Below are positions 16,317 to 35,757 of a stretch of DNA of 36,442 nucleotides, in pieces. The stretch comes from Beijerinckiaceae bacterium. GTDB lineage: Bacteria; Pseudomonadota; Alphaproteobacteria; Rhizobiales; Beijerinckiaceae. The translations under genes were made by a program, and so were the position numbers. Location: contig CANGFT010000044.1 of the NCBI GenBank assembly GCA_947453205.1, positions 1-36,442 of the forward strand, read 5' to 3'. How positions within the stretch are numbered: position 1 is the first letter of the stretch; every line of letters starts with the position of its first letter. Under the pieces are notes generated by a model. It ran no database searches. It was given only the letters and a program-made list of their open reading frames with translations, and was not told where the DNA came from.

Positions 16317-16345
16317 AGCGCCCCGCAAGGCTCATGCGGGGCGCT
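16317..16345. terminator. Hairpin between convergent genes, probable bidirectional terminator
   Basis: AGCGCCCCGCA (16317-16327) and TGCGGGGCGCT (16335-16345) form a perfect 11-bp GC-rich stem with a 7-base loop. It lies 8 bases after the DUF6165 stop and 11 bases after the stop of the last gene of the long minus-strand operon. There is no T run, so termination efficiency is uncertain, but location and strength suit a 3'-end hairpin for both transcripts. Confidence 0.65.
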
Positions 16346-16356
16346 CCAGCCAGCGA

Positions 16357-17397
16357 TCACTTCTTGCGCCGCCAGGGGCCAAGCTCCTTGGCCGCGGCTT
16401 CGGCGAACGAGAGGTCGATGCAGTCCTCGACCCGCAGCGCCTTGTTGGCGACTTCCCCCTGCTCCTGGAAAAAGGCGAGGTCGCGGGCGATGCTCTCCAG
16501 CGCCGGCTTGCCATCGGGGTCGGTGGCCTGCGGCGTGATGCTGCGCGCGAGATCCAGGGGTATGTTCAGCTTGCGCGAGAAGATGTCGATGACCTCATCC
16601 GCGCCGCCATCCGTGCGCCAGCGACCATTTTCGAGGGCGTCCAGATAGTTGCGGTTCGCCCTGAGAAAAGCACGCATGAAGCGCCTCGCCACATCGGCGC
16701 GCTCCTGCCGGAATTTGTCGCCGAAAAAGAGAAGCGAGAGCTCATACATGCTCACGACCTCCTCCGAGGGGGCGAATTCAATGGCCAATCCCTCGCGCGC
16801 GACAAGGGTCTTGTAGGGTTCGTTCATGACGGAGCCATCGATGGCGCCGCTTTTGAACGCCGCCACCTGCTGCGAGAAGCTCATGAAGGACTTCTCGATG
16901 TCTTCATATTTCACGCCGCCCTTGATCGCCGCCTGATTGATGACCGACAGGGGGCCGACGCCGGCGCCGCCCTGCGCAAATTTGAGTCCCTTCAGATCAG
17001 ACCATGACTTGAAGCGCCCGCTGGTGATGAGCTCCTTGCGGATCATGAAGCTCTGGTAGACGTAACCGGGCTCCGTGCGGCCCTTGTCCGCGACGATGCG
17101 CACGCCGACCTTTCGATCAATGGCGTTGAAGAGGCTGACGGCGGTGGCGCCGCCGCCGACATCAAGATCGCCCACGCCGAGCGAAGGAATCATCTTGGCG
17201 GAGGCGTCGAAGACGATGAATTCGACCTCGATGCCCTCCTGCTTGAAATAGCCCTTCTCATTGGCGACATGCACGGCGATGTCGCCGGATGTGTTGAGCA
17301 CGCCGACCTTGACGAGATCGGCGGCGTGAGCCGCATTGAAGGCGCCGCTGATCGTCGCGATGCAGAGGCAAGCGAGGCGAAGGGTGCTTTTCATCAT
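16357..17397 (-). CDS. ABC-type NitT/TauT/SsuA-like periplasmic binding protein
   Basis: A 346-aa exported receptor of the nitrate/taurine/sulfonate family. The leader runs to AFNAAHA|ADLVKVG, a standard Sec cleavage site. The mature part contains IAVHVANEKGYFKQEGIEVEF and SLGVGDLDVGGG, both typical. The start is ATG at 17395-17397 with GGGAGAGG upstream; an in-frame ATG at 17418 would disrupt the leader. It is the last gene of the minus-strand catabolic operon, 31 bases after the CoA-transferase. No permease (TauC/SsuC) or ATPase gene is present anywhere in the window, so partner subunits must be elsewhere. Ligand unknown; the family binds small organic anions, sulfonates and aromatic acids. 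Confidence 0.88.
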   Translation of the reverse strand: MMKSTLRLACLCIATISGAFNAAHAADLVKVGVLNTSGDIAVHVANEKGYFKQEGIEVEFIVFDASAKMIPSLGVGDLDVGGGATAVSLFNAIDRKVGVRIVADKGRTEPGYVYQSFMIRKELITSGRFKSWSDLKGLKFAQGGAGVGPLSVINQAAIKGGVKYEDIEKSFMSFSQQVAAFKSGAIDGSVMNEPYKTLVAREGLAIEFAPSEEVVSMYELSLLFFGDKFRQERADVARRFMRAFLRANRNYLDALENGRWRTDGGADEVIDIFSRKLNIPLDLARSITPQATDPDGKPALESIARDLAFFQEQGEVANKALRVEDCIDLSFAEAAAKELGPWRRKK

Positions 17398-17428
17398 GTT
17401 CCTCTCCCTTTGATTCATTCAGCCGCTT

Positions 17429-18655
17429 TTATGTTTTATCTCTGGGCGCCATCTGGCGTATGGCGCCGCGCTCCCCGAGAGCTTCGATCTCCGCCTGCGA
17501 GAGATGGAGCACCCTGGCCAGCACCTCCTGCGTGTGCTGGGCGAGCCTTGGGGGAAACATATGGTCGCGCTCCCCATCGCGCGGCAGTTTGATTGGATTG
17601 CCGGCGACGCGCAGGTGATGCCCCTCGTCATCCGTCAGTTCAAGGATCATGTTGCGCCAGGACACCTGCGGGTTCTCGAGCGCCTCGCCGACGGTGTTCA
17701 CGGTGCCCACGGGAACGCCGGCGGCCAGCAGCGAATCGACCCAGTCGCTCGCATCCTTTTCGAGAAAGGCTTTGTCAAAGGCGGCGATGATGCGCTCGCG
17801 GTGATAGTAGCGCCCGCGCCGCGTCGCAAGCTCCGGCTCCGCGCCCATCTCGTGAAGTCCAGCCGCGTCGCAGAGCGAGCGCCACATGCGGTCGGTGTTG
17901 GCGCAGACGACGACGTCGCGTCCATCGCGCGCGGTGAAAGATCGGTAGCTCGGGATGGACTCGTGGCCTCGTCCCTGCCTGCCGGGCACGGCGCCTGACG
18001 CCAGATAATAAGACGCCTGATAGGTCAGCATGGCGATCTGGCAATCGAGCATGGATATGTCGATATAGCGCCCCCGCCCGGTCTCGCGCCGCGATTCCAG
18101 CGCTGCGCAGATGGCGGTCGCCGCATACATGCCAGCCGAGAGATCTGCGAGCGGAATGCCCGCGCGCACCGAGCTTCCATCAGGCTCGCCGGTGAGGCTC
18201 ATGCCGCCGGAGACGGCCTGGATCACCATGTCATAGGCCGGCCTTTGCGCCTCCGGCCCGTCCTGACCAAAGCCGCTGATGGAGCAATAGATGATGCGCG
18301 GGTTCACCGCTGATATGCTGTCGTAGGAAATGCCGTGTTCGGCGAGGCCGCCGGGCTTCTGGTTCTCAAGCAGCACGTCGCATTCGCAGGCCAGACGTTT
18401 GAGAAGCGCGAGGCCTTCCGGCGTTTTATAATTGATGACGATGCTTTTCTTGTTGCGGTTGACGCTGTGGAAATAGGCGCTGTCGCCCGCGATGAAGTTC
18501 GGCGGCAGTTGACGGGTCATGTCGCCGCCGTCGGGCTCGATCTTGATGACCTCCGCGCCCATGTCGGCGAGGATTTGCGAGCCGAAGGGGCCCGAGAGAA
18601 ACAGCGAAAGATCAAGCACACGAATATGGCCGAGCATTTTGGGGTCGCCGCTCAT
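17429..18655 (-). CDS. Family III CoA-transferase (CaiB/BaiF type)
   Basis: A 408-aa cytoplasmic enzyme that moves CoA between carboxylic acids through an aspartyl-CoA intermediate. Evidence: the N-terminal VLDLSLFLSGPFGSQILADMGAEVIKIEP, the segment NRNKKSIVINYKTPEG, DVLLENQKPGG, and GFGQDGPEAQRPAYDMVIQAVSGGMSLTGEPDG, where the Asp of RPAYD corresponds to the catalytic position. Start ATG at 18653-18655, seven bases after the thiolase stop. In this operon it probably activates the growth substrate or an intermediate as a CoA thioester, with succinyl-CoA or another acyl-CoA as donor. The donor and acceptor are inference. Confidence 0.9.
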   Translation of the reverse strand: MSGDPKMLGHIRVLDLSLFLSGPFGSQILADMGAEVIKIEPDGGDMTRQLPPNFIAGDSAYFHSVNRNKKSIVINYKTPEGLALLKRLACECDVLLENQKPGGLAEHGISYDSISAVNPRIIYCSISGFGQDGPEAQRPAYDMVIQAVSGGMSLTGEPDGSSVRAGIPLADLSAGMYAATAICAALESRRETGRGRYIDISMLDCQIAMLTYQASYYLASGAVPGRQGRGHESIPSYRSFTARDGRDVVVCANTDRMWRSLCDAAGLHEMGAEPELATRRGRYYHRERIIAAFDKAFLEKDASDWVDSLLAAGVPVGTVNTVGEALENPQVSWRNMILELTDDEGHHLRVAGNPIKLPRDGERDHMFPPRLAQHTQEVLARVLHLSQAEIEALGERGAIRQMAPRDKT

Positions 18656-18662
18656 GCCGGCC

Positions 18663-19802
18663 TCACGTGTTCAGGATCGTGATGGCGCAGGCACCATGAT
18701 CGAGGCCCGCTATGCCGCCGCCGGTGCAGTGGGTGAGCCCGACCTTCGCGCCCTCGGCCTGCCGCGCGCCCGCCTGTCCGCGCAACTGCCAGACGACTTC
18801 CACAAGCTGCGCCGCGCCGGTCGCGCCCACGGGATGGCCTTTCGACAAAAGGCCCCCGCTCATATTGACGGGGATGCGCCCGCCCACGGACGTCGCGCCG
18901 CTCTCGAGCAACTGATAGGCCTCGCCCTTTTTGCAAAAGCCGAGCGCCTCGTAATACATCAGCTCCGCGATGGCGAAGGCGTCATGCACCTCGGCCACGT
19001 CAACATCCCCGGGGCTGACGCCGGTCTCTTCGTAGATTTCGCCCGCGCCTCGTTGGGTGATCTCGGCCGTGGTGATGTCGCGATAGCCCGTGACAAAGCG
19101 CCCTGAGGTGAGCTCGGCGCCTGCGATCCAGACGGGCTTTGTGGTGTGTTGCGCAGCGACGTCGCCGGCGCAAAGCACAAGCGCCGCTGCGCCGTCTCCG
19201 GTGGGGCAGCAATGCAGCAGGCCGAAGGGTTCTGCGACAGGCCGTGCGGCCATGACCTCCTCCAGCGTGACGGGCTTTTGATACTGGGCGAAGGGGTTCA
19301 GCGCGCCATGGCGCCGCGCCTTCACCGAGACCTGCGAGAGCTGCTCGCGCGTCAGGCCGAATTCGTGCATGTAGCGGCGCGCGCGCATGGCGTAGAGCGC
19401 GGGCATGGTCAGGCCGACATCCACTTCCCAGTCTTCCGGCTGGCCGGGCAGCACGCCGCCGCCGAGCATGGTCAGTTTGTCGATGCCGATCACGAGCACG
19501 CGGTCGTGGCGCCCTTCGGCGATGGCGAGATAGGCCTCGCGGAAGGCCGTCGCGCCGCTTGAACAGGCGTTCTCGCAGTTGATGACGGGCACGCCTGTCA
19601 TCCCCAGCGGGCGCAGGACGCGCTGGCCCGCGAGGCGCCCGCCATAGGCTGAGCCGCAATAGACGGCTTCGATCTGCTTGCGGTCCACGCCCGCGTCTTC
19701 GATCGCGCCTTTGACCGCAGGCCAGCCCAGATCCTGGAAGATAAGTTCGGGATAACGCCCGATGCGCCCCATGGAGGCGCCGATGACAGCGACCTTACGC
19801 AT
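18663..19802 (-). CDS. SCP2/nonspecific lipid-transfer-type thiolase
   Basis: A 379-aa thiolase-fold enzyme of the SCP-x type. Catalytic residues are all kept: Cys80 in CENACSSGA, His273 in EVHDAFA (SCP2-type in place of NEAFA), His323 in KGHPVGATGAA and Cys359 in HCTGGGIAG. It therefore probably performs true CoA-dependent C-C cleavage rather than only the retro-aldol reaction of Ltp2-type relatives, though the latter cannot be excluded. Its ATG overlaps the stop of the upstream DUF35 gene by one base (TGATG), a sign of stoichiometric coupling. DUF35-thiolase pairs are known complexes, for example BbsA-BbsB in toluene degradation. Confidence 0.9.
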   Translation of the reverse strand: MRKVAVIGASMGRIGRYPELIFQDLGWPAVKGAIEDAGVDRKQIEAVYCGSAYGGRLAGQRVLRPLGMTGVPVINCENACSSGATAFREAYLAIAEGRHDRVLVIGIDKLTMLGGGVLPGQPEDWEVDVGLTMPALYAMRARRYMHEFGLTREQLSQVSVKARRHGALNPFAQYQKPVTLEEVMAARPVAEPFGLLHCCPTGDGAAALVLCAGDVAAQHTTKPVWIAGAELTSGRFVTGYRDITTAEITQRGAGEIYEETGVSPGDVDVAEVHDAFAIAELMYYEALGFCKKGEAYQLLESGATSVGGRIPVNMSGGLLSKGHPVGATGAAQLVEVVWQLRGQAGARQAEGAKVGLTHCTGGGIAGLDHGACAITILNT

Positions 19803-20224
19803 CAGCGCGCCTCCGTGACGGGTTTGAATCTGTGGGAGAGAACGGCGACGCCGTCGGCGTCGGTGCGCAGCGTTCCTACGATCAGTTCGACGGGAGCGTC
19901 GAGGGGCGGGGGATTGGCGACACCATCCTCAAGCGGCGCGCAGACGCGCACGCCATCCTCAAGATCGACATAGGCGATGGCGTAGGGCGAGGGCCAGCCC
20001 TTTCGCGCCGCATGAACGACAGAGAAGGAATAGAGCCTACCGCGCGTGGCGAGCGCGACATCTTTTTGCTCGGTGGACCAGCAGGAGGAGCAGATCTTCG
20101 GCTTGGGGAAGACCTTGGCGCCGCATCCCGCGCAAAGCCCGCCCATCAGCCGGGGCTCGCCGGCTTCGTCGGCGCCGATGCTCCCGGCAAGCGCGTAGCG
20201 TGGCTCGACGACCTCTGCGCTCAT
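19802..20224 (-). CDS. DUF35 Zn-ribbon/OB-fold acyl-CoA-associated protein
   Basis: A 140-aa protein with a four-cysteine zinc ribbon (Cys31, Cys34, Cys45, Cys48 in CAGCGAKVF and KICSSCWS) followed by an OB-fold domain with GRLYSFSVVHAARKG and YAIAYVDLEDGVRV. DUF35 proteins act as partner subunits of thiolases or aldolases, binding the acyl-CoA. The start ATG at 20222-20224 has GGGGAGAG upstream; an in-frame ATG at 20245 is less likely. The gene overlaps the thiolase start by one base, so the two are expected to form a complex. Confidence 0.9.
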   Translation of the reverse strand: MSAEVVEPRYALAGSIGADEAGEPRLMGGLCAGCGAKVFPKPKICSSCWSTEQKDVALATRGRLYSFSVVHAARKGWPSPYAIAYVDLEDGVRVCAPLEDGVANPPPLDAPVELIVGTLRTDADGVAVLSHRFKPVTEAR

Positions 20225-20273
20225 GTTTTCTCTCCCCTGTTTCAAGCAGCTTCGCCTGTCGGCGCAGCCATCG

Positions 20274-21299
20274 TCAATTCGCGCCGTAGACGGCCTTGAT
20301 CTTCTGCACGAGGTCGGGGGTCAGATTGCCGACCTCCTGAACGAGCTCCTGAAGCTTCGCTCCATCCATGGGCGTCAGCTCCACGCGCATCTTTTCGAGT
20401 TCCGCGACAAATTCCTGGTCCTTCGTCATGTCCATGAAGGCCTTGCGCAGAGCCGCGGCGCGCTCTGCAGGAAGGCCGGGCGAAGAGAGGATCGCCTTGC
20501 CGATTTCGGTCGCGTTCACCACCGCGCGCAGGATCTGCTTCTGCTCATCGGTTTTCGCGATCTCGACGCAGGTCGGCACGTCCGGCAGATCAGGATGGCG
20601 GTTCAGACCATATTGCACGACGACATTGATCTTCTTGTCCTTGATCCAGTCGGGATGGGCGGACTTATAGGCCTCCCAGCTCGTGGAATGGCCCTCGACC
20701 TCGCCTCGCTCCATGGCCAGCATGGCTTCGTTGGAGCCGCCATAGCCCATCACAAGCTTGAACTTGGCGCCAAGCACGCGGTTCAGCACATTGGGATAGA
20801 CATAGACCGTCGAGCCTGTGCCCGTGGCGCCAAGCGAGGCTTCGGTGGTCATGGCGTCGTTGATGGTCTTGATCTTCGACATACTCCACATGGCCGTGAC
20901 ATTGACGCTGGAGGACACGCGGCCGATCCAGCTGAACTTCGCGGTCTCGAATTTGACCCCCGGCGCGCCCAGCCGCTCGTCCAGCACATTGGTGGCGGCG
21001 AGCAGGCCCAGCACCGTGCCATCCTTAGGGGCCACATTGTAGATATGATTGGCCGCAAGAATGCTGCCCGCCCCCGGCATGTTGCGGAAGACGACCTGCG
21101 GGGAGCCCGGGATGTGGCGCCCGATATGGCGCGCCACCGCGCGGCCATAGACATCGTTGCTGCCGCCCGGGGGATAGCCGACGATCAGCTCGACGGTCTT
21201 GCCAGCGTAGAAGGCGTCGACCCCCTGCGCCATGGCGGGAAGCGTCGCGCCGATGATGAGCGCCGCGCTGATCGTCATCGCCCTGTGGTGCCTGCTCAT
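20274..21299 (-). CDS. TctC/Bug-family periplasmic receptor (orphan)
   Basis: A 341-aa exported solute-binding protein of the tripartite tricarboxylate transporter family. The leader ends PAMAQ with likely cleavage before GVDAF. The mature protein shows KTVELIVGYPPGGSNDVYGRAVARHIG (ligand-binding loop), then HIPGSPQVVFRNMPGAGSI and NVAPKDGTVLG, all family hallmarks. Bug receptors bind small carboxylates with high affinity. No TctA or TctB gene is near. It lies inside the catabolic operon between the CoxG-like and DUF35 genes, so its ligand is probably the pathway substrate. Start ATG at 21297-21299; codon 8 is an alternative. Confidence 0.92.
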   Translation of the reverse strand: MSRHHRAMTISAALIIGATLPAMAQGVDAFYAGKTVELIVGYPPGGSNDVYGRAVARHIGRHIPGSPQVVFRNMPGAGSILAANHIYNVAPKDGTVLGLLAATNVLDERLGAPGVKFETAKFSWIGRVSSSVNVTAMWSMSKIKTINDAMTTEASLGATGTGSTVYVYPNVLNRVLGAKFKLVMGYGGSNEAMLAMERGEVEGHSTSWEAYKSAHPDWIKDKKINVVVQYGLNRHPDLPDVPTCVEIAKTDEQKQILRAVVNATEIGKAILSSPGLPAERAAALRKAFMDMTKDQEFVAELEKMRVELTPMDGAKLQELVQEVGNLTPDLVQKIKAVYGAN

Positions 21300-21323
21300 C
21301 GTTTCCTGATCCCTTGCCTTTGT

Positions 21324-21857
21324 TTATTTCAGCAGATCCTTGCCTGCGTTCCAGAGCCCCTTGGCCATGGTGGAGGCCATGCCGATGTCTTTTGCGGCTT
21401 CGGTCGAGCCTGAGAGATTCGCTTCAAGGTTTCTGGCGAACTGGTTCATGATGACCTGCGCGGTGGACTGCAGAATCGCCGCGCCGCGCGCATATTGCGC
21501 GATGGAGCCTGCGAGCTGGATGTCCGACTCCACGCAGATTTTCGTGCGCCCGTCGATCTCGCTCAAAGCGAAGACGACATCTGCCTGCGCGGCGCCGCGC
21601 GCCTTTTCCTCATTGCCCTGGGCCTTGGCGAGGACGCGATGGTTCGCCGCATCCCGTTCGATGAAGCTGACGGTTCCCTTGAACTTGAGCGCAATGGGGC
21701 CAAGCTTCACGCTGATGGTTCCCACATGGGAATCGTCTGGCCGCGACTCCAGAAGCTCGGCGCCCGGCGCGCAAAGGGCGACGCGGGGAATGTCGTTCAG
21801 CGCCGTCCATATGTCGGCGATGGCCGCCTGAATGAGAATTTCATTTTTGATCTTCAT
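21324..21857 (-). CDS. CoxG-like SRPBCC protein
   Basis: A 177-aa protein of the CoxG/SRPBCC (START-like) fold. Evidence: the beginning MKIKNEILIQAAIADIWTALND with CAPGAELLE, then GTISVKLGPIALKFKGTVSF, and GSIAQYARGAAILQSTAQVIMNQFA, the pattern seen in CoxG of Mo-CO dehydrogenase clusters. CoxG proteins have been linked to membrane anchoring and quinone delivery for molybdenum hydroxylases. The C-terminal 30 residues form an amphipathic helix that could touch the membrane. It starts nine bases after ubiD. In this operon it probably serves the CoxMSL-type enzyme; this is inferred from adjacency. Confidence 0.88.
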   Translation of the reverse strand: MKIKNEILIQAAIADIWTALNDIPRVALCAPGAELLESRPDDSHVGTISVKLGPIALKFKGTVSFIERDAANHRVLAKAQGNEEKARGAAQADVVFALSEIDGRTKICVESDIQLAGSIAQYARGAAILQSTAQVIMNQFARNLEANLSGSTEAAKDIGMASTMAKGLWNAGKDLLK

Positions 21858-21866
21858 TCGAGCGGC

Positions 21867-23510
21867 TCAACTCTTCTTTTCAACAGAGCGGACGGCTGTC
21901 TCCGCGTTCAGGCCGGTGCGTTGCCGCCCCAGCGTCTGCAGGCCATTCGCCTCCCAGTCGCCGTTGACCGCGTTTTTCGCAAATTCGGTCCAGTCATCGC
22001 CCCAGTTGCCGAGTTCATAGCCATGCCATGGCGAGGGAACCTTCAGAGCGGGCAGGCCAAGCTCCTTCCAGATGTCCAGCGCCTCCTCCATGAACTCCTT
22101 CTTAGGCAGGGCGAGGGGCGGCATCAGGCGTTTGCGGGTGGCGTCCACAAGCAGGGCTGAATCGCTCTTGCGTTCGCCATATTGCGAGCCCTGCCCGCCG
22201 CCGCGATAGGGCAGCACGAGCGTGTCCTCCTTCGGGTTGCAGCGATAGGCCATCGACCAGAGGACCGCGTCGACGGAGGAAGGGTCGATGTCATCGCTCA
22301 CGGCGATCACGACCTTGCCGAAGGCGGTGATGTAGCAGCTTGCCGCCTCCAGCCCGCGCCAGACTTCGCTTTGGGGCGCGCCATATTCGAATTGCAGGAA
22401 GATGACAGGCCGCAGGTTCGTCAGGGGCTCGTGCAGCACGACGCGCTTGAGGCCCTTGATGTTGAGGGTCTTGCGCAGGTGATGCAGGAACAGCGGCTCG
22501 TAGGCGACCTTCTTGATGACGCTGGATTCGCTCGGCGTGACCTGACTGATGATGGCGCTGAAGATGGCGTTGCGCCTGTGGGTGATGGCGGTCACCTGCA
22601 TAGGCATGTTGAAGGCTTCAAGCGCTACATAGCCATTGCTCTCGCCAAAGGGCGCCTCGGGCTCCAGGAGATCGGGCTCGATATAGCCTTCGATGACGAT
22701 TTCCGATTGCGCGGGAACCTCAAGGTCGTTGGTGACGCATTTCACCATCTCCACAGGCGCGCCTGCGACCGCGCCCGCCACGGCATATTCATCGAGATCG
22801 ATCCCGAATTTCTGGGGTGAGGTGAAGATGACGACCGGCGCGCCGCCGAGCGCAATGGAGATGGGCATGCGCTCCTTGCGGTCGCGATATTTCAGCCAGT
22901 GGACCCAGCCGCCCGCGCCGCCGGGCCGCGCCACCATGCGCACGACGAGGCGATCGGTCGCCTTGAGGGCGGCGCGATACATGCCGGTGTTCTGCACGCC
23001 GGTTTCAGGGTCGCGCGTCACGCAGAGCGTGGCGGTGAGATAGGGCGCGGCGTCATAGCCGGGCGTCGAGATCGGCACAGGCAGCATGGCGAGGCCGCCC
23101 CCGGGGCGCTTCAAGTCCTCGCCTGTGATGACCACCTCCTGACAGGCGCCGCTCGCCACCGTCACAGGCGGCACGGGATTGGCGACTGCGTCCATCCAGG
23201 CGGGGCCGATCTCGCTTGTCGGCCTGCCCATGCCCATGGCGTAGATGCGCGGCGAGCCTGCAAGGGCGCCGAGCAGCACGGGCATGTCATAGCGCTTGCC
23301 CTTGGAGTCCACGACATTGGTGAAGAGGAAGGCCTTGCGCTCGTCCTCGGGCATGCCGCCGATGAATTGCCAGCGCACGAGAGGCTGCAGCTGCGTGTCC
23401 TTGTTGATGGGACGGTCGACGCGCACGAGAAGGCCTGCGGCGTCGAGCGCGGCGAGATGTTCGTGCAGATCGCGGGGCGGATTGGGGCCTGCGCCCTTGG
23501 CGTCATCCAT
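21867..23510 (-). CDS. UbiD-family prFMN-dependent (de)carboxylase
   Basis: A 547-aa enzyme of the UbiD family, which uses prenylated FMN to decarboxylate or carboxylate aromatic and alpha,beta-unsaturated acids. Evidence: VQNTGMYRAA with Asn174 and Arg179, spaced as the Asn168/Arg173 pair of fungal Fdc1; SEIVIEGYIEPD with Glu270 and Glu274 in the segment that carries the catalytic glutamates; and PFGESNGY. The N-terminus DLHEHLAALDAAGLLVRVDRP is also typical. It is about 50 residues longer than E. coli UbiD (about 500 aa). The prFMN-making UbiX is not in the window. Start ATG at 23508-23510 with AGAGGA upstream. Its place next to a molybdenum hydroxylase resembles the HmfF-HmfABC furan pathway logic. 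Confidence 0.93.
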   Translation of the reverse strand: MDDAKGAGPNPPRDLHEHLAALDAAGLLVRVDRPINKDTQLQPLVRWQFIGGMPEDERKAFLFTNVVDSKGKRYDMPVLLGALAGSPRIYAMGMGRPTSEIGPAWMDAVANPVPPVTVASGACQEVVITGEDLKRPGGGLAMLPVPISTPGYDAAPYLTATLCVTRDPETGVQNTGMYRAALKATDRLVVRMVARPGGAGGWVHWLKYRDRKERMPISIALGGAPVVIFTSPQKFGIDLDEYAVAGAVAGAPVEMVKCVTNDLEVPAQSEIVIEGYIEPDLLEPEAPFGESNGYVALEAFNMPMQVTAITHRRNAIFSAIISQVTPSESSVIKKVAYEPLFLHHLRKTLNIKGLKRVVLHEPLTNLRPVIFLQFEYGAPQSEVWRGLEAASCYITAFGKVVIAVSDDIDPSSVDAVLWSMAYRCNPKEDTLVLPYRGGGQGSQYGERKSDSALLVDATRKRLMPPLALPKKEFMEEALDIWKELGLPALKVPSPWHGYELGNWGDDWTEFAKNAVNGDWEANGLQTLGRQRTGLNAETAVRSVEKKS

Positions 23511-23536
23511 ATGTCAGTCCTCTGGAGATGCGCGGC

Positions 23537-24325
23537 TCAATCCGCATGGACGCGGCTCGCGAAGGCGCGCAGAAGGGCGGCGAATTGTCTTGGCTGTTCG
23601 AGGGGCGCGAGATGGCCGGTGTCGAGCTCACGATAATCGGCGCCGGGAATGGTGGCGGCCAGATCCTTCATTGCGCTCACCGGCGTCGATTGATCGCGCA
23701 GGCCCGCGATGACCATGGCGGGACGCCGCATGGTCTCCAGCCGCTCGGCATAGTTGAGGTCTCGGATCGCGCGCCAGGACCAGCAGTGAACCACCGGATC
23801 GGCCGCCAGCAGCCAGTCGCGCGCCTTCAGCACGAGGTCAGGCCGCTGCGCCATGAGATCAGCATCGAACCAGCGGGTGAGCGTGGTCTGCAACACCGTC
23901 GGCATGCCCTTGAGCGCGGCTTGCGCGCGTTGCTCCATGGTGGCGCGGCCCTGATCGTTGCGGCGATGGGCGGTGTTGGCGATGACGACGCCCGCAAGAA
24001 GCTCGGGCGCCCGCACGGACAGAGCCTGCGCGGTCATGCCGCCCATGGAGCAGCCCGCCACAACGGTCGGGGCCTGGCCGACCGCACGGATGAGCTCCGC
24101 CACATCGTCGGAGAGGTCATCGTGGCCGAAGCCTTCGGCAGGGACGTCGCTGTCGCCATGGCCGCGCGCATCAGGCGTGATGAGGCGAAACTCGCTTTCC
24201 AGCTCCGCCACGACCGGATCCCAGAAGGCGCCGCACAGGCCCACGGGATGCAGCAGCACAATGGTGCGGCCCTGTCCGCGCGAGCGATAGGCGATGCTGA
24301 GGCCGGACTTTGTCCTGAAACGCAT
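23537..24325 (-). CDS. Alpha/beta hydrolase, enol-lactonase-like
   Basis: A 262-aa alpha/beta hydrolase. The catalytic triad is visible: Ser93 in the nucleophile elbow GCSMGG, Asp211 in GLRDQSTP and His238 in DTGHLAPLEQP. The oxyanion-type loop is HPVGLCGAFW. The arrangement resembles 3-oxoadipate enol-lactonase (PcaD) and related hydrolases that open lactones, thioesters or C-C bonds. The start ATG at 24325 has GGGAGG eight bases upstream and is preferred; a GTG at 24331 would overlap the stop of the coxL-type gene as GTGA. In the operon it probably hydrolyses a ring-opened, lactone or CoA-ester intermediate. Confidence 0.9.
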   Translation of the reverse strand: MRFRTKSGLSIAYRSRGQGRTIVLLHPVGLCGAFWDPVVAELESEFRLITPDARGHGDSDVPAEGFGHDDLSDDVAELIRAVGQAPTVVAGCSMGGMTAQALSVRAPELLAGVVIANTAHRRNDQGRATMEQRAQAALKGMPTVLQTTLTRWFDADLMAQRPDLVLKARDWLLAADPVVHCWSWRAIRDLNYAERLETMRRPAMVIAGLRDQSTPVSAMKDLAATIPGADYRELDTGHLAPLEQPRQFAALLRAFASRVHAD

Positions 24326-24327
24326 GG

Positions 24328-26664
24328 TCACTGCCTCCCTTTGGCGTCCAGCACGAGCTGCACGATCGTCTCGGGCGAGACCGGCATCTGGGCGATGCGC
24401 ACGTTGAAGGGGCGCAGGGCGTCCTCCACCGCGCTGATGATGGCGGCGATGACGGCGATGGTGCCGCCCTCGCCCGCGCCCTTCACGCCGATGGGGTTGA
24501 GCGGCGATGGCGTCTCCGTATGCAGCGTCTCCACATGGGGAACGTCGGTCGCCATGGGCAGGAGATAATCGGCGAAGCTGGTCGTCAGCGGCTGGCCGCT
24601 CTCGTCAAAGAGCAGCTTTTCGAAGAGCGCGTTGCCGACGCCATGGGCCACCCCGCCGACGATCTGGCCTTCGACGATCATGGGGTTGATGACATTGCCG
24701 CAGTCATGGTTGACGAGCACGCGGGTGACTTTCACATGGCCCGTCTCAATGTCGACCTCGACCTCCGCCACATGGCAGCTGTTGGCGTAGGTCGATTGCT
24801 CCGGCTTGAAATAGCTCGTCGCCTCAAGGCCGGGATCGCGGTCCGCCTTCATGGAGAAGCCATAGAGCCCGACGGCGTTATAGGCGAGCTCGCGGAAGGT
24901 CTTGCGCATGCCCGGCACGCCGCGCACCTCGACGGCGCCGTCCTTGAGTTCGAGATCGTCGGGCGAGACCTCCAGAAGTTCGGAGGCGATCTTCTTGATC
25001 TTCTCGCGCACCTCTATGGCGGCGAGATGAACCGAGGAGCCTGCATTGACGGCGGTGCGCGAGGCGAAGGTGCCCATGCCGAAGGGAATGGTCGCGGTGT
25101 CCGCCGTCACCACGCTCACATCCTCATAGCTGACGCCAAGATGATCGGCGGCGATCTGCGCCAGGGTGGTCTTGTGCGACTGCCCCTGCGGCGTCGCCCC
25201 CGTGAAGACGACGATCTTGCCGCTGGTGGAGATGCGGATGGTCGCCCCTTCGTAAGGGCCAAGGCCGGTGCCTTCGACGGCGTTGCTGAGGCCGATGCCG
25301 ATGTAGCGGCCCTGCTTCAAAGCAGCTTCCTGCTTCGCGCGGAAATTCTCCCAATCCATATGGTCCAGCGCCATCTGCTGGCTCTTGGGATAATCGCCGC
25401 TGTCATAGGTGACGGGACGGCCATCGCGGAAGATGAGGCCGACCTTGTAGGGAAACTGGTCGGGCTGGATGAAATTGCGCCGGCGCACCTCGGCCCGGTC
25501 GAGGCCGAGCTCCTGCGCGATGCGGTCCATCATCCGCTCCATGACGAAGCAGCCCTGCGGGCGTCCCGCGCCGCGCACGGGGCTGCAGGTGATCTTGTTC
25601 GTCATGGCGACGATGAGTTCGAGCTGGTAGTTCGGCAGCACATAGGGGCCGATGACCGAGGTCGCGGCGATCCACGGCAGCACGAGGCCCCAGGTCACAT
25701 AGGCGCCGCCATCATGCACGAGGCGCCCGCGCAAGCCCAGCAGCTTCGCATTCTCGTCGACGGCGACCTCCATGTCCCAGTATTGGTCGCGCTCCTGCTG
25801 GGTCGCGACGAAATTCTCGCGTCGGTCCTCGATCCATTTGACGGGCTTGCCGACGACCATGGTCGCGGCGGCGAGCGCGCCATATTCAACGTAGAAGGAG
25901 CCCTTGGGGCCAAAGCCGCCGCCCACATCATTGGTGATGACGCGCACCTGATTGTCCGCGAGATCCAACAGGTCGATGAAGGTGCGTTTGAACCTGTGCG
26001 AGCCCTGCGATGAGGCATGGACCGTCAGTTGCTCCGTGCCTGCGTCCCAGTCCGCCACCACGCCGCGGCATTCCAGAAAGAAGGGCCCGCCCCGATGCAG
26101 CGCGAATTGTTCGCGGAAGACATGGGCCGCCTGCGCAAAGGCCTTGTCGGTGTCGCCGATCTTCACCGGCACCTGGGTGACGATGTTGTTGACGGCGCCC
26201 TGCTGGGCCAGCGGCGCGCCATCGACGATGGCTTCGCGCGGATCGATGGAGGCCGGGAGCACATCGTAATCGACCTCGACCAGCGCGGCGCCGTCTTCTG
26301 CAAGATAGCGGCTCTGGGCGATGACGATGGCGATGGCCTCACCCGCGAAGCAGGTTTCGTCCTTCGCCAGAACCCAGGGCATGAAGGTCTGCTTGATCGC
26401 GGGATGCGGCACATAGAGCGGCAGGCGGCGCGAGCGCATGGGCTCGGGCAGATCATCATGGGTGAGGACGGCCACGACGCCGGGCAGGGCGAGCGCCGCG
26501 CTCGTGTCGATGCTCTTGATGCGCGCATGGGCGTAGGTGCTGCGCACGAAGGCGGCGTGCAGCATGCCCGGCAGCTTCACATCATCCACATAGCGGCCCT
26601 TGCCGGTGAGCAGGGCGGGGTCTTCCTTGCGAAGAACGCTGGCGCCGAAGAATTTCATCCCCAT
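24328..26664 (-). CDS. Molybdenum hydroxylase large subunit (CoxL/XdhB-like, not CODH type)
   Basis: A 778-aa molybdopterin-binding subunit of the xanthine oxidase family. It opens FFGASVLRKEDPALLTGKGRYVDD, typical of the CoxL branch, and shows the Mo-cofactor loop VGGGFGPKG (248-256). The active-site motif reads PVRGAGRPQ (about 362-370), the aldehyde/xanthine type; the form I CO dehydrogenase motif AYRCSFR is absent. The catalytic Glu is about residue 732 in GVKGAGEGG. It therefore most likely hydroxylates an aromatic ring or oxidises an aldehyde with water. Start ATG at 26664 overlaps the stop of the small subunit by one base. Confidence 0.93.
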   Translation of the reverse strand: MGMKFFGASVLRKEDPALLTGKGRYVDDVKLPGMLHAAFVRSTYAHARIKSIDTSAALALPGVVAVLTHDDLPEPMRSRRLPLYVPHPAIKQTFMPWVLAKDETCFAGEAIAIVIAQSRYLAEDGAALVEVDYDVLPASIDPREAIVDGAPLAQQGAVNNIVTQVPVKIGDTDKAFAQAAHVFREQFALHRGGPFFLECRGVVADWDAGTEQLTVHASSQGSHRFKRTFIDLLDLADNQVRVITNDVGGGFGPKGSFYVEYGALAAATMVVGKPVKWIEDRRENFVATQQERDQYWDMEVAVDENAKLLGLRGRLVHDGGAYVTWGLVLPWIAATSVIGPYVLPNYQLELIVAMTNKITCSPVRGAGRPQGCFVMERMMDRIAQELGLDRAEVRRRNFIQPDQFPYKVGLIFRDGRPVTYDSGDYPKSQQMALDHMDWENFRAKQEAALKQGRYIGIGLSNAVEGTGLGPYEGATIRISTSGKIVVFTGATPQGQSHKTTLAQIAADHLGVSYEDVSVVTADTATIPFGMGTFASRTAVNAGSSVHLAAIEVREKIKKIASELLEVSPDDLELKDGAVEVRGVPGMRKTFRELAYNAVGLYGFSMKADRDPGLEATSYFKPEQSTYANSCHVAEVEVDIETGHVKVTRVLVNHDCGNVINPMIVEGQIVGGVAHGVGNALFEKLLFDESGQPLTTSFADYLLPMATDVPHVETLHTETPSPLNPIGVKGAGEGGTIAVIAAIISAVEDALRPFNVRIAQMPVSPETIVQLVLDAKGRQ

Positions 26665-27161
26665 CACGCATGCTCCGCTTTGCTGGCGCGCAACTTGGCG
26701 GCGGCGTCGAGGCCAGCCGCGACAATGGCCTGATAGCCAGTGCAGCGGCACAGATTGCCCGTGAGCACCTCGCGCAGCTCTGCTTCGGTGGGGTCGGGAT
26801 TGTCGCGCAGATGTTCGCTCAGGGTGATGAGCATGCCCGGCGTGCAGAAGCCGCATTGCAGGCCATGGTTGTTCTGGAAGGCCTCCTGGAGGATGGAGAG
26901 CTTTCCATCGGCCTGCGCGAGCCCCTCGATCGTGGTGATCGACTTGCCATTCGCCTGCACGGCGAACATGAGGCACGAGCGGGCGGAATGCCCGTCGACC
27001 ATCACGGTGCAGGCGCCGCAGACCCCATGTTCGCAGCCCACATGGGTGCCCGTGAGGTCGAGCGTATGGCGCAGAAAATCGGCGAGCAGCAGGCGGCTTT
27101 CCACCTCCGCCTCATGGCGCTGGCCATTCACGGTGACGGTGATCTTTCTGGTGTCAGGCAT
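26664..27161 (-). CDS. Molybdenum hydroxylase [2Fe-2S] small subunit
   Basis: A 165-aa iron-sulfur subunit that passes electrons from the Mo centre to FAD. Eight cluster cysteines are visible: Cys43, Cys48, Cys51 and Cys63 in the plant-ferredoxin-type cluster ([14 protein letters not shown]), then Cys103, Cys106, Cys138 and Cys140 in the helical domain ([16 protein letters not shown]). Start ATG at 27159-27161 ([14 protein letters not shown]); upstream in-frame codons overlap coxM and lack support. It overlaps the end of the FAD subunit gene by eight bases, giving the usual M-S-L order and tight coupling. Confidence 0.96.
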
Positions 27162-28032
27162 GCTGGAGGCTCCTCTCGCGCGCATGGGCGAGGGCGCGCC
27201 GCAGGGCGCGGGCTGAAAGGATGCTGGCGAGATGCTGGCGATAGGCGGCGCTCACATGGGCGTCGTCCATGGCCTCGACGCTGGAGGCCGCATGGGCGGC
27301 GGCCTTGATGAAGTCATCATCCGGCGCCGCGCCGACGGCCTGCGCCTCAAAATCGCTCAGGCGCGCAGGCGCGGGCGCGAGGCCGCCGATCACCATGGCG
27401 AGCCGCGAGACGGCGCCGCGTGCGTCCAGCGTCAGCAGCACGCCCGCTGAGGCGATGGCGAAATCGCCGTGACGGCGGGCATATTCCTCAAAGCCCCAGC
27501 CATGGGTCTTCGCCCAGGGTTCAAAGGAGATCCGCGTGAGCAGTTCGCCCGGCTCCAGCGCGCTCGTCATGAAGCCAAGCGCGAAGTCGCCCATGGCAAG
27601 CTCGCGCGATCCCTCAGCCGATTGCGCGGTGAGCACCGCGTCATGCAGCATCATCATGGCGGGCGTTTCAGCCGCAGGGTCGAGATGGCAGAGCGAGCCG
27701 CCGATCGTGCCGCGGTTGCGAGTCTGGCGATGGCCCACATGGCGCAGCGCGTCGATGAGGATGGGGCAGGCCTGCGCCAGATCGCCGGAAAACTCCACAT
27801 CCCGCTGGCGCGTCATGGCGCCGAAGGAGATGCGCGCGCCCACCTCAAGGCCGCGCAGCGCCTCGACGCCATTGAGATCGACGAGATGATCGGGCGTCGC
27901 ATAGCGGAAATTCATCATGGGCACGAGGGACTGGCCGCCCGCCAGCGGGCGCGCATTCTCGTGCTGCGCCAGCAAGGCGACGGCCTCCCCGATGGTCGTG
28001 GGGTCGTGATAGGCGAAGGGGGCGGGTTTCAT
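27154..28032 (-). CDS. Molybdenum hydroxylase FAD-binding medium subunit
   Basis: A 292-aa FAD subunit of the CoxM/XdhA-N type. FAD-binding loops are [13 protein letters not shown] (31-43) and [19 protein letters not shown] (about 104-122), both diagnostic. The C-terminal part is the CO dehydrogenase flavoprotein-type domain. Start ATG at 28030-28032 has GGAGG four bases upstream; an upstream GTG/ATG region in the same frame is leader sequence and Pro-rich. It is the first gene of the eleven-gene minus-strand operon, so the promoter must lie in the 176-base divergent gap to 28209. Confidence 0.95.
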
Positions 28033-28208: not shown

Positions 28209-28946
28209 ATGGCTGTCGACCACAAGACCATTCAAGTCATCTGCGCTGGCGGCTTCAGAGCCGCCATGGAGGAGATCGCCCCGCGTTTCACGCAAGCCAC
28301 CGGCGTCGAGGTCGCGCTGACCTTCGGCGCTCCGGCGAAAACCCGAGAGCTCGTCAGCGCGGGCGCCGGGTTTGACGCGGCTGTCGTCACTCTTGGCAGC
28401 CTGAATGCGGAAGCCTCCGCGCAGCTGGACGAGGCGACGCGGTTCATCGTCGCCAAAAGCCCGGTCGGCATGGGCCTGCGCGCCGGACTTTCGCGGCGCT
28501 CCATCGACACCGTCGAGGGTTTTGCGGCGCTGATCCGCTCCCTGCCCTCGGTCGGCCTGTCCGATCCCAAGGCCGGCACCAACCTTGGCATGGACATCAT
28601 CGCCGCCGCCACGCGGCTTGGCTTTGGCGAAGATTTGAAGTCTCGCGCCCATTTCATCGAGGGGCCGGGCTCGGTCGTCTCCGCCGCCGTGGCCAAGGGC
28701 CATCCTGAAGCGGTGATCACGCTCGTCAGCGAGATCATCACGGTCGATGGCGTGACCTTCACGGGGCTGATCCCCGACGCCATGGGGCTCGGCACGCCCT
28801 TCGTGGCGGCTGCGGGCGGGCAGGCGCAAGCGAAGGCGCAGGCGCAGCAATTGCTGGACTATCTGCGCGGCGACGTCGCCCTCGCCATCATGACGGCCAC
28901 AGGTCTCGTCTGCGGCCCGAGCGCACTGCCGAAAACCGGGCAATGA
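28209..28946 (+). CDS. ModA-like substrate-binding-domain protein without signal peptide
   Basis: A 245-aa protein with the fold plan of family 11/ModA-type extracellular solute-binding proteins: IQVICAGGFRAAMEEIAPRF, then FDAAVVTLGSLN, GLSDPKAGTNLGMDI and a C-terminal QLLDYLRGDVA. ModA proteins capture molybdate, but this group also includes uncharacterised relatives. No leader is present: the N-terminus is MAVDHKTIQ with no hydrophobic stretch, so it probably stays in the cytoplasm unless the start is wrong; no upstream start gives a leader. Start ATG 28209 has GAGGAAAC just before it. It is divergent from the molybdenum hydroxylase operon. Confidence 0.78.
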   Translation: MAVDHKTIQVICAGGFRAAMEEIAPRFTQATGVEVALTFGAPAKTRELVSAGAGFDAAVVTLGSLNAEASAQLDEATRFIVAKSPVGMGLRAGLSRRSIDTVEGFAALIRSLPSVGLSDPKAGTNLGMDIIAAATRLGFGEDLKSRAHFIEGPGSVVSAAVAKGHPEAVITLVSEIITVDGVTFTGLIPDAMGLGTPFVAAAGGQAQAKAQAQQLLDYLRGDVALAIMTATGLVCGPSALPKTGQ

Positions 28947-29196
28947 CGGGGTCCGCCATCTCACGCAGGCGGCGCGTCGGACTGATTCATGGGGATTTGA
29001 GTTCGTCATTTTGCAGACTTGGGCCAGGAGCCAATCAGCCAGATTTTCTCACCGGTGATTTCAATCCGCACCCAGACCGTCCCCTGGGCAAAGTAAGGGG
29101 GGCGCATGGTTGACACCCTGCGCAGCGCCTGTTGAACTGGTCGCAAAGGTGGCGGGTCGGGCCTCGACTTCACAAGCCACCGGAGGAAACCGCCCC

Positions 29197-30657: not shown

Positions 30658-30779
30658 AGGCCCGCGTCGGGGAAGGCCTTTATCGACTTCGCTGCAGGCG
30701 CGACATCGCCGCCAGAACGAATGAACCAGAGCCGCCGCCGCTACAGTGCGCAAGGGCAGGCCAGACAGAGGAGGATAGC

Positions 30780-31811
30780 ATGACCAGGATCAGCCGAATC
30801 ATGATGGCGTCCGTGCTGCTGTGCGGCTCGGCGTCAATCGCAGCGGCGCAGAGCGTCGAGCAGTTCTATCGCGGCAAGACCGTGACCATCATCGTCGGAT
30901 CCTCGCCGGGCGGCGGCTATGACGCCTATGCGCGTCTGCTGAGCCGGCACTTCTCGAAGCATATTCCGGGGGCGCCGACTGTCGTGGTCAGCAATATGCC
31001 GGGCGGAGGCAGCGAGGTCGCGGCCGGATATGTCGCCAATGTGGCGCCGAAGGATGGAACCTATATCGCTGCGACCTATTCCAACCAACCCCTCGACTCC
31101 GTTCTCGAGAACGTGCCGCCCCTGCCCTATGATCCCAAGAAGCTCAAATACCTCGGCTCGGCCGCTCAGGATGATTGGCTTTGCATCGTGCGCAGCAATT
31201 CGCCCGTGCAGAGTTTCGCCGACGTTTTCAGGACGGAGATAGTCGTGGCCGGCGTCATGAACGCTCAGACCGGCTATGTGCCCATGATGATGAACCGCCT
31301 GCTCGGCGCCAAGTTCAAGCCGATCGTCGGCTATCCGGGGTCGCGTGAGCAGGTTCAGGCCATCCAGACGGGCGAGGTCGACGGGATGTGTGGTCTCGGC
31401 TACACGAGCCTGAAGTCGCAATATCCATCTATGCTGAGGAATGGCGAGGTCAAGATCATTCTTCAGGAGATGGAGAAGGACGTCCCGGAACTGACGGCCA
31501 TGGGCGTGCCGATAATCGGCGGCTTCATCAAGGATGAAGTGAAGCGCCGCGTGTTCGAGATCGTCAATTCCCAACAGGAGTTCAACCGCCCCTATTTCGT
31601 CGGCCCCGGCGTTCCGGAAGACCGACTGACGGCGCTGCGCACGGCCTTCATGCAGGCCTGGAAAGATCCTGAACTGCTCAAGGAGGCCGACAAGATGAGC
31701 CTAGACGTCATGCCCATGTCTGGCCTCGACCTGCAGGCGCTCCTCGAAAAGATTTACAGCAGCCCGCCGGAGGTGCTGAAGCTGGCGCGCGAGGCGGTCG
31801 ACATGAAGTGA
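30780..31811 (+). CDS. TctC/Bug-family periplasmic receptor (orphan)
   Basis: A 343-aa Bug-type receptor. Signal peptide MTRISRIMMASVLLCGSAS runs to cleavage near AAAQ|SVEQF. The ligand loop VTIIVGSSPGGGYDAYARLLSRHF, then HIPGAPTVVVSNMPGGGS and NVAPKDGTYI, are diagnostic. Start ATG 30780 has AGGAGG seven bases upstream. It is related to the receptors at 20274, 32986 and 34615, and no TctAB membrane subunits are nearby. It follows the BVMO gene and probably shares its transcript. A 7-bp hairpin (GACCGCA/TGCGGTC, 31810-31827) overlaps the stop codon and may protect the mRNA 3' end. Confidence 0.92.
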   Translation: MTRISRIMMASVLLCGSASIAAAQSVEQFYRGKTVTIIVGSSPGGGYDAYARLLSRHFSKHIPGAPTVVVSNMPGGGSEVAAGYVANVAPKDGTYIAATYSNQPLDSVLENVPPLPYDPKKLKYLGSAAQDDWLCIVRSNSPVQSFADVFRTEIVVAGVMNAQTGYVPMMMNRLLGAKFKPIVGYPGSREQVQAIQTGEVDGMCGLGYTSLKSQYPSMLRNGEVKIILQEMEKDVPELTAMGVPIIGGFIKDEVKRRVFEIVNSQQEFNRPYFVGPGVPEDRLTALRTAFMQAWKDPELLKEADKMSLDVMPMSGLDLQALLEKIYSSPPEVLKLAREAVDMK

Positions 31812-34008: not shown

Positions 34009-34067
34009 GAACGGGCGCGCAAGTCAGCGCCAACATCCCATCCAGTGAAACAAGGAGGGAATAGGCC

Positions 34068-34607: not shown

Positions 34608-34614
34608 TGTGCTT

Positions 34615-35616: not shown

Positions 35617-35757
35617 AATGACGCAACAGGGGGCAGGGCTGCGGACCATCATCTGGATGTCAGCCCTGGCTTGCATGTCCGCCATGGGCCAAATCATGGA
35701 TGGCGGCAGCATCGCCATGCGCGACAAGAGCATCGCGCAAAGCGAGGTGGACGACGC

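What the first reader, a model, noticed from the sequence alone, without database searches (positions are those of the whole stretch)
16357..28032. Eleven-gene operon joining a UbiD decarboxylase, a molybdenum hydroxylase and a DUF35-thiolase pair
Eleven minus-strand genes run from 28032 to 16357 with overlaps or short gaps (1-base overlap coxS-type/coxL-type and DUF35/thiolase, largest gap 49 bases) and end at a strong hairpin. The set includes Mo-hydroxylase M/S/L, hydrolase, UbiD, CoxG-like, TctC receptor, DUF35, thiolase, CoA-transferase and SsuA-like receptor. I do not recognise this exact combination as a described pathway. It reads as a complete route for an aromatic or heteroaromatic acid: uptake, CoA activation, ring hydroxylation, decarboxylation, hydrolysis and C-C cleavage. 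The order of steps is inference.
Basis: partly seen in the sequence, partly recalled or inferred. Interest (0 to 1): 0.75.

Follow-up and report, generated by a model that had tools for sequence, protein, structure and literature searches.

The report
UbiD–molybdenum-hydroxylase ring-acid degradation operon
A bacterium carries an eleven-gene operon that appears to strip a carboxyl group from a ring-shaped acid, add oxygen from water, open the ring and cut the product into central metabolites; the enzyme set recurs in relatives, but the compound it eats is unknown.

Summary
In detail: eleven same-strand genes (28032-16357) with the stated families and tight spacing, ending at an 11-bp perfect hairpin shared with a convergent gene. 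The set travels together: the order recurs in close relatives, and a reordered version (window genes 39-70% identical, no PcaD-like hydrolase) occurs in genome G397. The core pair, UbiD plus Mo-hydroxylase large subunit, lies within 5 kb in 13 of 18 well-flanked loci with UbiD at 60% or more, in Alpha- and Betaproteobacteria. CoA-transferase, DUF35 and thiolase form a separate cassette, found elsewhere beside a PcaD enol-lactonase, or with Mo-hydroxylase but no UbiD on a Variovorax plasmid. The closest described logic is the HMF/furoate (hmf) pathway, but membership fails: HmfA 34% and outside the clade, HmfF His replaced by Ser, no AMP ligase. Substrate unknown; furan-type or N-heteroaromatic acids are the main candidates. 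Five paper searches aimed at the gene set found no description. New variant of a known kind; the named strain Propylenella binzhouense L72 carries the UbiD/Mo-hydroxylase part, so it is testable.

The parts
27154..28032 (-). Mo-hydroxylase FAD subunit (M)
   Evidence: PF00941 151 bits, PF03450 60 bits
26664..27161 (-). Mo-hydroxylase [2Fe-2S] subunit (S); ORF open from 27185
   Evidence: PF01799 100 bits, PF00111
24328..26664 (-). Mo-hydroxylase large subunit (L); motif VRGAGR at residue 364 (numbered from 26667), not the CO dehydrogenase CSFR motif (recalled)
   Evidence: PF20256 295, PF02738 254 bits; motif; best solved relative quinoline 2-oxidoreductase 1t3q 513 bits
23537..24331 (-). alpha/beta hydrolase, PcaD (3-oxoadipate enol-lactonase)-like, Ser in GCSMGG, GLRD Asp, GHL His
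   Evidence: best solved relative 2xua enol-lactonase; TIGR02427 187.6 bits, below cut-off 255.85; motifs
21867..23510 (-). UbiD prFMN decarboxylase; Arg179, Glu285, Glu290 at the positions of the E-R-E triad
   Evidence: PF01977 179 bits; triad; profile of 13 relatives matches PtHmfF best, 222 bits, E. coli UbiD 183
21324..21857 (-). CoxG-like SRPBCC protein, likely partner of the Mo-hydroxylase
   Evidence: PF06240 54 bits; found in 15 of 42 relative loci
20274..21299 (-). TctC-type periplasmic binding protein
   Evidence: PF03401 41 bits
19802..20224 (-). DUF35 (zinc ribbon + OB fold), BbsA-like thiolase partner; two CxxC at 38 and 52 (numbered from the longer ORF)
   Evidence: PF01796, PF12172; BbsA model 89 bits, below cut-off
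18663..19802 (-). SCP2-type thiolase, BbsB-like, active-site Cys and HDAF/GHPVGATG motifs kept
   Evidence: 7pxp benzoylsuccinyl-CoA thiolase 281 bits; motifs
17429..18655 (-). class III CoA-transferase (CaiB/BaiF), candidate Asp in PAYDMVIQ
   Evidence: PF02515 399 bits; succinate-hydroxymethylglutarate CoA-transferase 9br7 287 bits
16357..17418 (-). NMT1/SsuA-like periplasmic binding protein
   Evidence: PF09084 55 bits; follows CoaT in L010, L033 and L137
16317..16345 (.). 11-bp perfect inverted repeat between convergent ORFs, candidate bidirectional terminator without T-run
28209..28946 (+). divergent PF13531 binding-protein-like gene, in the same divergent position in L008, L010, L048

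Best explanation
This is one catabolic operon for a carboxylated (hetero)aromatic ring acid. TctC- and NMT1-type proteins bind it outside the cell (inferred). UbiD with prFMN, supplied by a UbiX-type protein encoded elsewhere, removes a ring carboxyl group. The three-subunit Mo-hydroxylase adds oxygen from water to the ring, with CoxG as its docking or electron-transfer partner. The product is a lactone- or lactam-like tautomer that the PcaD-like hydrolase opens. The resulting keto acid is activated by the class III CoA-transferase, probably with succinyl-CoA, and cut by the BbsAB-like DUF35/thiolase pair. Shown: the families, catalytic residues, and that the genes co-occur as two cassettes (UbiD + M/S/L + CoxG; CoA-transferase + DUF35 + thiolase). 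Inferred: the reactions, their order and the substrate. The preferred substrate class is a furan-type acid, because alpha-hydroxylation of a furan gives an enol lactone directly, the substrate type of PcaD; an N-heteroaromatic acid is nearly as likely.
For: Families and active-site residues. Same gene order in the closest relatives as far as contigs reach: L010 (= L134-L135, one added dehydrogenase gene), L048 + L033 (= L100), L008 + L137 (two contigs of G380), L136 partial. Distant, reordered version L138: thiolase, M, S, L, IclR, CoaT, crotonase, DUF35, UbiD, TctC, CoxG. L within 5 kb of UbiD in 13 of 18 loci with UbiD at 60% or more and 5 kb on both sides. Own genome: 3 of 7 UbiD within 5 kb of one of 12 L, expected 0.25, P 0.0012. 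UbiD and L distances correlate, r 0.92, 25 rows. Window-type L subunits form a supported clade of 22. Cassette with a hydrolase above the NCBIfam PcaD cut-off in L162 and L163. Same set without UbiD on Variovorax plasmid CP063167.1 (seven proteins 38-62% identical, hydrolase 27%). By profile, the UbiD clade is nearest to the furan-dicarboxylate decarboxylase HmfF among solved structures.
Against: No substrate evidence of any kind. The HmfF signature His is Ser in this clade. With the single UbiD sequence, E. coli UbiD scored slightly above HmfF (158.7 vs 151.8). Thiolase at 90% or more identity is in 5 of 51 genus genomes, so the CoA cassette may be a local add-on. 13 of 42 UbiD loci show no L in the DNA held: L015, L016, L020, L031, L032, L034, L037, L041-L044, L046, L047 (L044 has S and M; L015, L031, L037 and L047 are short or cut contigs); also L094, L096, L099, L101. 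The hydrolase is below the PcaD cut-off, is missing in L138, and the Variovorax one is only 27% identical. The correlation of distances also reflects species kinship.
Confidence: 0.6

Rival explanations
1. It is a member of the known hmf (5-hydroxymethylfurfural/2,5-furandicarboxylate/2-furoate) pathway: UbiD = HmfF, M/S/L = HmfABC, CoA enzyme = HmfD, hydrolase = HmfE (gene names of the pathway partly recalled).
For: Same kinds of parts. HmfF-type clusters on Cupriavidus pENH92 and Paraburkholderia pBN1 hold UbiD, UbiX, Mo/FAD/FeS subunits, AMP-binding and enoyl-CoA hydratase proteins, and the pBN1 Mo subunit carries a fused CoxG-like tail (window CoxG vs that tail 23%, E 1.5e-6). The UbiD clade profile matches PtHmfF best.
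Against: L vs HmfA-type subunit 34% identity and outside the clade; the His of HmfF (E-H-L-L-L-G) is Ser in all 8 window-clade UbiDs aligned; a class III CoA-transferase instead of an AMP ligase; no UbiX among the eleven genes; DUF35/thiolase not needed for 2-furoate (inference).
Confidence: 0.07
2. It degrades an N-heteroaromatic carboxylate (pyridine, pyrrole or indole type): Mo-hydroxylase next to the ring N, UbiD decarboxylation of the hydroxy acid, then lactam or amide hydrolysis, in the style of nicotinate or indoleacetate catabolism (both recalled).
For: Best solved relatives of L are quinoline and hydroxypseudooxynicotine oxidoreductases together with CO dehydrogenases. A NicX-like protein sits in or beside the cluster in L014, L018, L019 (only 24.6 bits to NicX, measured on the L018 protein). 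UbiD members decarboxylate pyrrole- and indole-carboxylates (PMC7976604 and PMC8988006, passages).
Against: The NicX-like gene was not found in the window; the hydrolase is closest to enol-lactonases; no nitrogen-handling gene (amidase, deaminase) was recognised among the eleven.
Confidence: 0.25
3. CoA comes first: the class III CoA-transferase makes an aroyl-CoA that UbiD decarboxylates, as in anaerobic phthalate degradation (recalled).
For: Class III CoA-transferase next to a UbiD-type enzyme; phthaloyl-CoA decarboxylases are in the same superfamily.
Against: Phthaloyl-CoA decarboxylase is among the weakest solved matches to the clade profile (96 vs 222 bits for HmfF); CoaT found in 3 of 42 UbiD loci.
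Confidence: 0.08
4. The M/S/L set is a CO dehydrogenase of the form II type and the rest is an unrelated neighbour.
For: CoxG beside M/S/L; NF040766 'aerobic CO dehydrogenase group 5' 863.7 bits, below its cut-off 950.
Against: Motif VRGAGR instead of the CSFR motif of true CoxL (recalled), below the cut-offs of both CO dehydrogenase large-subunit models matched, co-occurrence with UbiD.
Confidence: 0.03

Closest known systems
hmf pathway for HMF, 2,5-furandicarboxylate and 2-furoate (HmfF UbiD, HmfABC Mo-hydroxylase, HmfD, HmfE)
   Same: UbiD decarboxylase plus three-subunit Mo-hydroxylase plus CoxG-like domain plus CoA activation plus crotonase or hydrolase
   Different: 34% L identity, different L clade, HmfF His absent, class III CoA-transferase, DUF35/thiolase and PcaD-like hydrolase added, CoxG as a separate gene, no UbiX in the operon
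Variovorax paradoxus VAI-C plasmid cluster CP063167.1 (annotated record; I found no study of it and did not search for one by name)
   Same: CoxG, DUF35, thiolase, M, S, L, CoA-transferase, alpha/beta hydrolase together; L 50%, thiolase 56%, S 62% identity
   Different: No UbiD within the 22-kb stretch shown; branched-chain-type ABC transporter, IclR, GMC oxidoreductase and enoyl-CoA hydratase added; hydrolase only 27% identical
Benzoylsuccinyl-CoA thiolase BbsAB with class III benzylsuccinate CoA-transferase (bbs, anaerobic toluene; pathway recalled)
   Same: DUF35 + thiolase pair (7pxp 281 bits) and class III CoA-transferase logic
   Different: Below the BbsA and BbsB equivalog cut-offs; no glycyl-radical or acyl-CoA dehydrogenase among the eleven genes
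Beta-ketoadipate lower pathway PcaD-PcaIJ-PcaF (recalled)
   Same: PcaD-like hydrolase followed by CoA transfer and thiolysis; a hydrolase above the PcaD cut-off stands beside the same cassette in L162/L163
   Different: CoA-transferase and thiolase are of other classes; the hydrolase here is below the PcaD cut-off

Membership tests
UbiD family | PF01977 fold and E-R-E catalytic triad | tested here: met
   178.7 bits vs cut-off 23.3; R179, E285, E290 conserved
HmfF (furan-2,5-dicarboxylate decarboxylase) | furan-specific His (H297 in PMC7976604 passage; residue 296 of the 6h6x chain as printed) | tested here: not met
   Ser in all 8 window-clade rows vs His in PtHmfF and two plasmid HmfF-like rows; alignment has a 2-residue gap nearby
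hmf pathway | HmfA-clade Mo large subunit | tested here: not met
   34% identity; separate supported branch in a tree with long branches flagged
hmf pathway | AMP-forming furoyl-CoA synthetase | tested here: not met
   none among the eleven genes; class III CoA-transferase instead; rest of the genome not searched for it
Aerobic CO dehydrogenase (form I) | CSFR active-site motif (recalled) and curated cut-off | tested here: not met
   VRGAGR; TIGR02416 578.8 vs cut-off 991
Xanthine-oxidase-family Mo-hydroxylase, M/S/L type | FAD, 2x[2Fe-2S] and MoCo domains on three subunits | tested here: met
PcaD 3-oxoadipate enol-lactonase | TIGR02427 above cut-off | tested here: not met
   187.6 vs 255.85; closest solved structure is nevertheless 2xua
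BbsAB benzoylsuccinyl-CoA thiolase | NCBIfam equivalog cut-offs | tested here: not met
   BbsA 89 vs 250; BbsB 309.5 vs 750
SCP2-type thiolase with nucleophilic Cys (not Ltp2-type aldolase) | Cys in the NACSSG stretch and HDxF, GHP motifs | tested here: met
   BbsB 281 bits vs lipid-transfer protein 6ok1 135.5 bits
Class III CoA-transferase | CoA_transf_3 fold and catalytic Asp | tested here: met
   398.6 bits; PAYDMVIQ; role of that Asp recalled
Substrate and reaction of the operon | enzyme activity on a named acid | not testable with these tools
   needs growth and enzyme assays

The most novel reading that the evidence does not exclude
A widespread, undescribed oxygenase-free route by which environmental Alpha- and Betaproteobacteria open carboxylated heteroaromatic rings: UbiD decarboxylation, Mo-hydroxylation with water, enol-lactone or lactam hydrolysis, and a non-homologous lower 3-oxoacid pathway (class III CoA-transferase + DUF35-thiolase in place of PcaIJ + PcaF). 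UbiD-Mo-hydroxylase pairing is a recurrent solution, seen with distinct UbiD and L subfamilies, perhaps for polycarboxylated ring acids of dissolved organic matter.
Probability: 0.28. Interest if true: 0.75.

Novelty: new variant of a known kind. Interest (0 to 1): 0.5.

Why it matters
Ring-cleaving catabolism in aerobic bacteria is usually traced through oxygenases. This pairing of a prFMN decarboxylase with a water-using Mo-hydroxylase is spread over many genomes, most of them metagenome bins (some titles name lakes), and would give a route that needs no oxygenase, possibly for carboxyl-rich ring compounds of dissolved organic matter (inference). A named strain with the UbiD/Mo-hydroxylase part (Propylenella binzhouense L72, L019) and a named strain with the Mo-hydroxylase/CoA part but no UbiD beside it (Variovorax paradoxus VAI-C) exist, so the function can be tested directly.

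Tried and rejected
Chance neighbourhood: rejected. CO dehydrogenase: rejected by motif and cut-offs. Membership in hmf: rejected. Ltp2-type retro-aldolase instead of thiolase: not favoured. Protocatechuate 4,5-cleavage genes beside the Burkholderiales version (LigK, LigA and LigB models over cut-off in L022; same gene families in L023 and L024) were considered as the downstream pathway; these gene families were not seen in the other 39 loci clustered and a gap of about 0.8 kb separates them from the UbiD side, so they were not used. The NicX-like protein had no Pfam or NCBIfam match and only 24.6 bits to NicX: kept as a weak lead. Ten paper searches were run: five aimed at the gene set, the others at HMF/HmfF (26, 52), a PDB entry (42), CoxG (59) and indoleacetate (74). 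Searches found no paper; the listings of 26, 52, 59, 61 and 62 held none whose title or abstract start describes this gene set. Only passages of PMC7976604, PMC8988006 and PMC8379154 were read. The library holds only CC0/CC BY/CC BY-SA PMC papers. Structure prediction, fold search, RNA-family search, viral-contig scans and the 5.8-billion-protein search were not used.


Full report
OBSERVATION. The window is C44:1-36442 of a 4.2-Mb, 109-contig genome. Its nearest relatives in the named UbiD scan are Beijerinckiaceae, Rhizobiales and Hyphomicrobiales metagenome bins (UbiD 96% in L008). Overlaps and gaps follow from the coordinates. The closing hairpin, 16317-16345, lies in a stretch that folds at -34.3 kcal/mol with z -2.31, between convergent ORFs, without a T-run.

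DO THE GENES TRAVEL TOGETHER? A scan of the collection of 84,980 species genomes with the UbiD, which finds close relatives only, gave 42 distinct loci; some come from one genome (L033 and L048; L032 and L038; L045 and L046), so they are not all independent. tblastn of the window genes and added reference genes against them gave an L subunit in 29 of 42, S in 24, M in 23, CoxG in 15, crotonase in 13 (two of these hits, L027 and L030, only 24-25%), PcaD-like hydrolase in 11, CoA-transferase in 3 (L009, L010, L033), thiolase in 3 (one, L042, only 32% and 8 kb away), DUF35 in 2. The L counted in L033 is a second, 48% copy 8 kb away; its first set is on the other contig, L048. Of 22 loci with at least 5 kb on both sides, 13 have L within 5 kb; of the 18 among them with UbiD at 60% or more, 13. 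Counted as misses although near: L019 (L at 5.9 kb) and L044 (S and M at 6.6-7.2 kb). In all 20, 15 show an L-type subunit; among the 11 new ones, 8 of 11. In L102-L107 the L beside the UbiD is of a distant subfamily (34-36%), and the UbiDs are 60-63%.

OWN GENOME. It holds 7 UbiD and 12 L-type subunits at E 1e-40. Three UbiD lie within 5 kb of an L; random placement gives 0.25 and P = 0.0012 (centre distance 6.5 kb used, contig breaks ignored). The other two pairs (C9, C12) belong to other subfamilies (UbiD 26-28%, L 34-37%), so the pairing recurs. UbiD and L distances correlate at r = 0.92 over 25 rows, 0 of 2000 permutations as high; six loci with L (L030, L033, L039, L045, L048, L049) were left out before that count, mostly because one gene is cut or on another contig, and shared species history also contributes. 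In a 40-row tree the 22 window-type L subunits form a supported clade, in an open fork with a second supported group of four (L035, L038, L138, L141), two Variovorax L subunits and a second L of G401; HmfA-type subunits lie far outside (long branches flagged there).

TWO CASSETTES. The thiolase at 90% or more identity occurs in 5 of 51 genus genomes (own, G380, G298, G401, G283), each with the neighbouring genes in the window's order as far as the contig reaches (G401 adds a Zn-type dehydrogenase). At 54-65% it occurs in eight more genomes and in a second copy in G298; of these nine places DUF35 lies beside it or in the same stretch in 9 and CoA-transferase within the stretch in 7 (L140 ends at the contig end, L143 has none called). 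One of them, L138 in G397, carries thiolase, M, S, L, IclR, CoA-transferase, crotonase, DUF35, UbiD, TctC and CoxG in that order, with window-gene identities of 39-70%; it has no PcaD-like hydrolase or NMT1 gene in the 31 kb read (L138, L148). L141 has DUF35, thiolase, M, S, L, CoA-transferase, and a 60% hydrolase on the other strand. In the order at large, 4 of 396 other genomes had the thiolase at E 1e-130, and all four have DUF35 and CoA-transferase beside it. In two of them (L162, L163) these are followed by a hydrolase that passes the NCBIfam cut-off for PcaD (262.3 and 260.0 against 255.85), with a distant M/S/L set (L 30%) within 10 kb; in the other two (L164, L165) no M/S/L, hydrolase or UbiD was seen in 20 kb. 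On Variovorax paradoxus VAI-C plasmid CP063167.1 the annotated order is SRPBCC (CoxG), OB-fold, thiolase, M, S, L, IclR, CoA transferase, GMC oxidoreductase, enoyl-CoA hydratase, alpha/beta hydrolase, with no UbiD in the stretch.

WHAT THE PARTS DO. UbiD keeps Arg179, Glu285 and Glu290. The profile of 13 clade members matches PtHmfF best among solved structures (222 and 212 bits), then E. coli UbiD (183); with the single sequence E. coli UbiD was slightly ahead (158.7 vs 151.8). That 6H6V is PtHmfF is from PMC8988006 (passages). The furan-specific His of HmfF (PMC7976604, passages) is Ser in all 8 clade rows and in all 13. No UbiX is among the eleven genes; two PF02441 proteins are elsewhere in the genome, one of them possibly CoaBC by its longer frame (inference). 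L has the VRGAGR motif; the hydrolase is nearest to 3-oxoadipate enol-lactonase; the thiolase is nearest to BbsB and keeps its Cys; the CoA-transferase is nearest to succinate-hydroxymethylglutarate CoA-transferase, which fits a dicarboxylate acceptor. That CoxG-type proteins anchor or serve enzymes at the membrane is recalled (only a search listing was seen).

MECHANISM. UbiD and M/S/L occur without a CoA-transferase in the DNA held for most relatives, and the CoA cassette occurs without UbiD. I therefore place decarboxylation and hydroxylation first, hydrolysis next, CoA transfer and thiolysis last. Chemistry (inference): alpha-hydroxylation of a furan gives an enol lactone; hydrolysis gives a 4-oxo acid; for a 2-furylacetate this is 3-oxoadipate, which is exactly what a CoA-transferase and thiolase would finish. 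This is a consistent example, not evidence for that substrate. N-heteroaromatic acids are the chief rival.

NOVELTY. Five full-text searches of the PMC subset aimed at the gene set listed no paper on it. The parts and the UbiD + Mo-hydroxylase principle are known from hmf; I found no description of the combination, the clade or the cassette in what I could search. Hence a new variant of a known kind.

Noticed in passing
window 28209-28946 (+): Divergent PF13531 protein that by eye starts without a signal peptide, in the same divergent position in L008, L010, L048 and with relatives near the operon in L011 and L012; could be a cytosolic ligand sensor.
   Followed up: no
window 29110-36381: Upstream genes: an FMO-like flavin monooxygenase, three TctC-type binding proteins, a cupin-like protein and a short luciferase-like ORF matching only positions 13-99 of the 314-position model; looks like another catabolic cluster.
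   Followed up: no
L135 4514-14352 (G401), also L149 (G298): Just downstream of the operon in two relatives lie a second M/S/L set, a second UbiD of another subfamily (380 bits to 7pda for the L135 copy) and a third M/L/S set: two UbiD and three Mo-hydroxylases in a row.
   Followed up: partly
L014 3391-4458, L018 363-1406, L019 11598-12761: NicX-like protein (L018 copy 24.6 bits to 2,5-dihydroxypyridine dioxygenase 7cn3; no Pfam match for the L014 copy) in or beside the operon in three relatives.
   Followed up: partly
L102; L107 looks similar by eye: UbiD relatives (60-63%) with a small two-gene TPP-type enzyme, a carboxymuconolactone-decarboxylase-like protein, another S/M/L set and, in L102, an FAD_binding_2 protein resembling TcuA (the name is recalled; Pfam).
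   Followed up: no
L168 14134-17163: The HmfA-type Mo large subunit carries a CoxG-like C-terminal domain (23%, E 1.5e-6 to the window CoxG), where the window has a separate coxG gene; the L167 copy is also long but was not tested.
   Followed up: partly
own genome, C9, C12, C37: Other UbiD/L or hydrolase/L neighbours in the same genome (L057, L055, L154): the organism seems rich in such clusters.
   Followed up: partly
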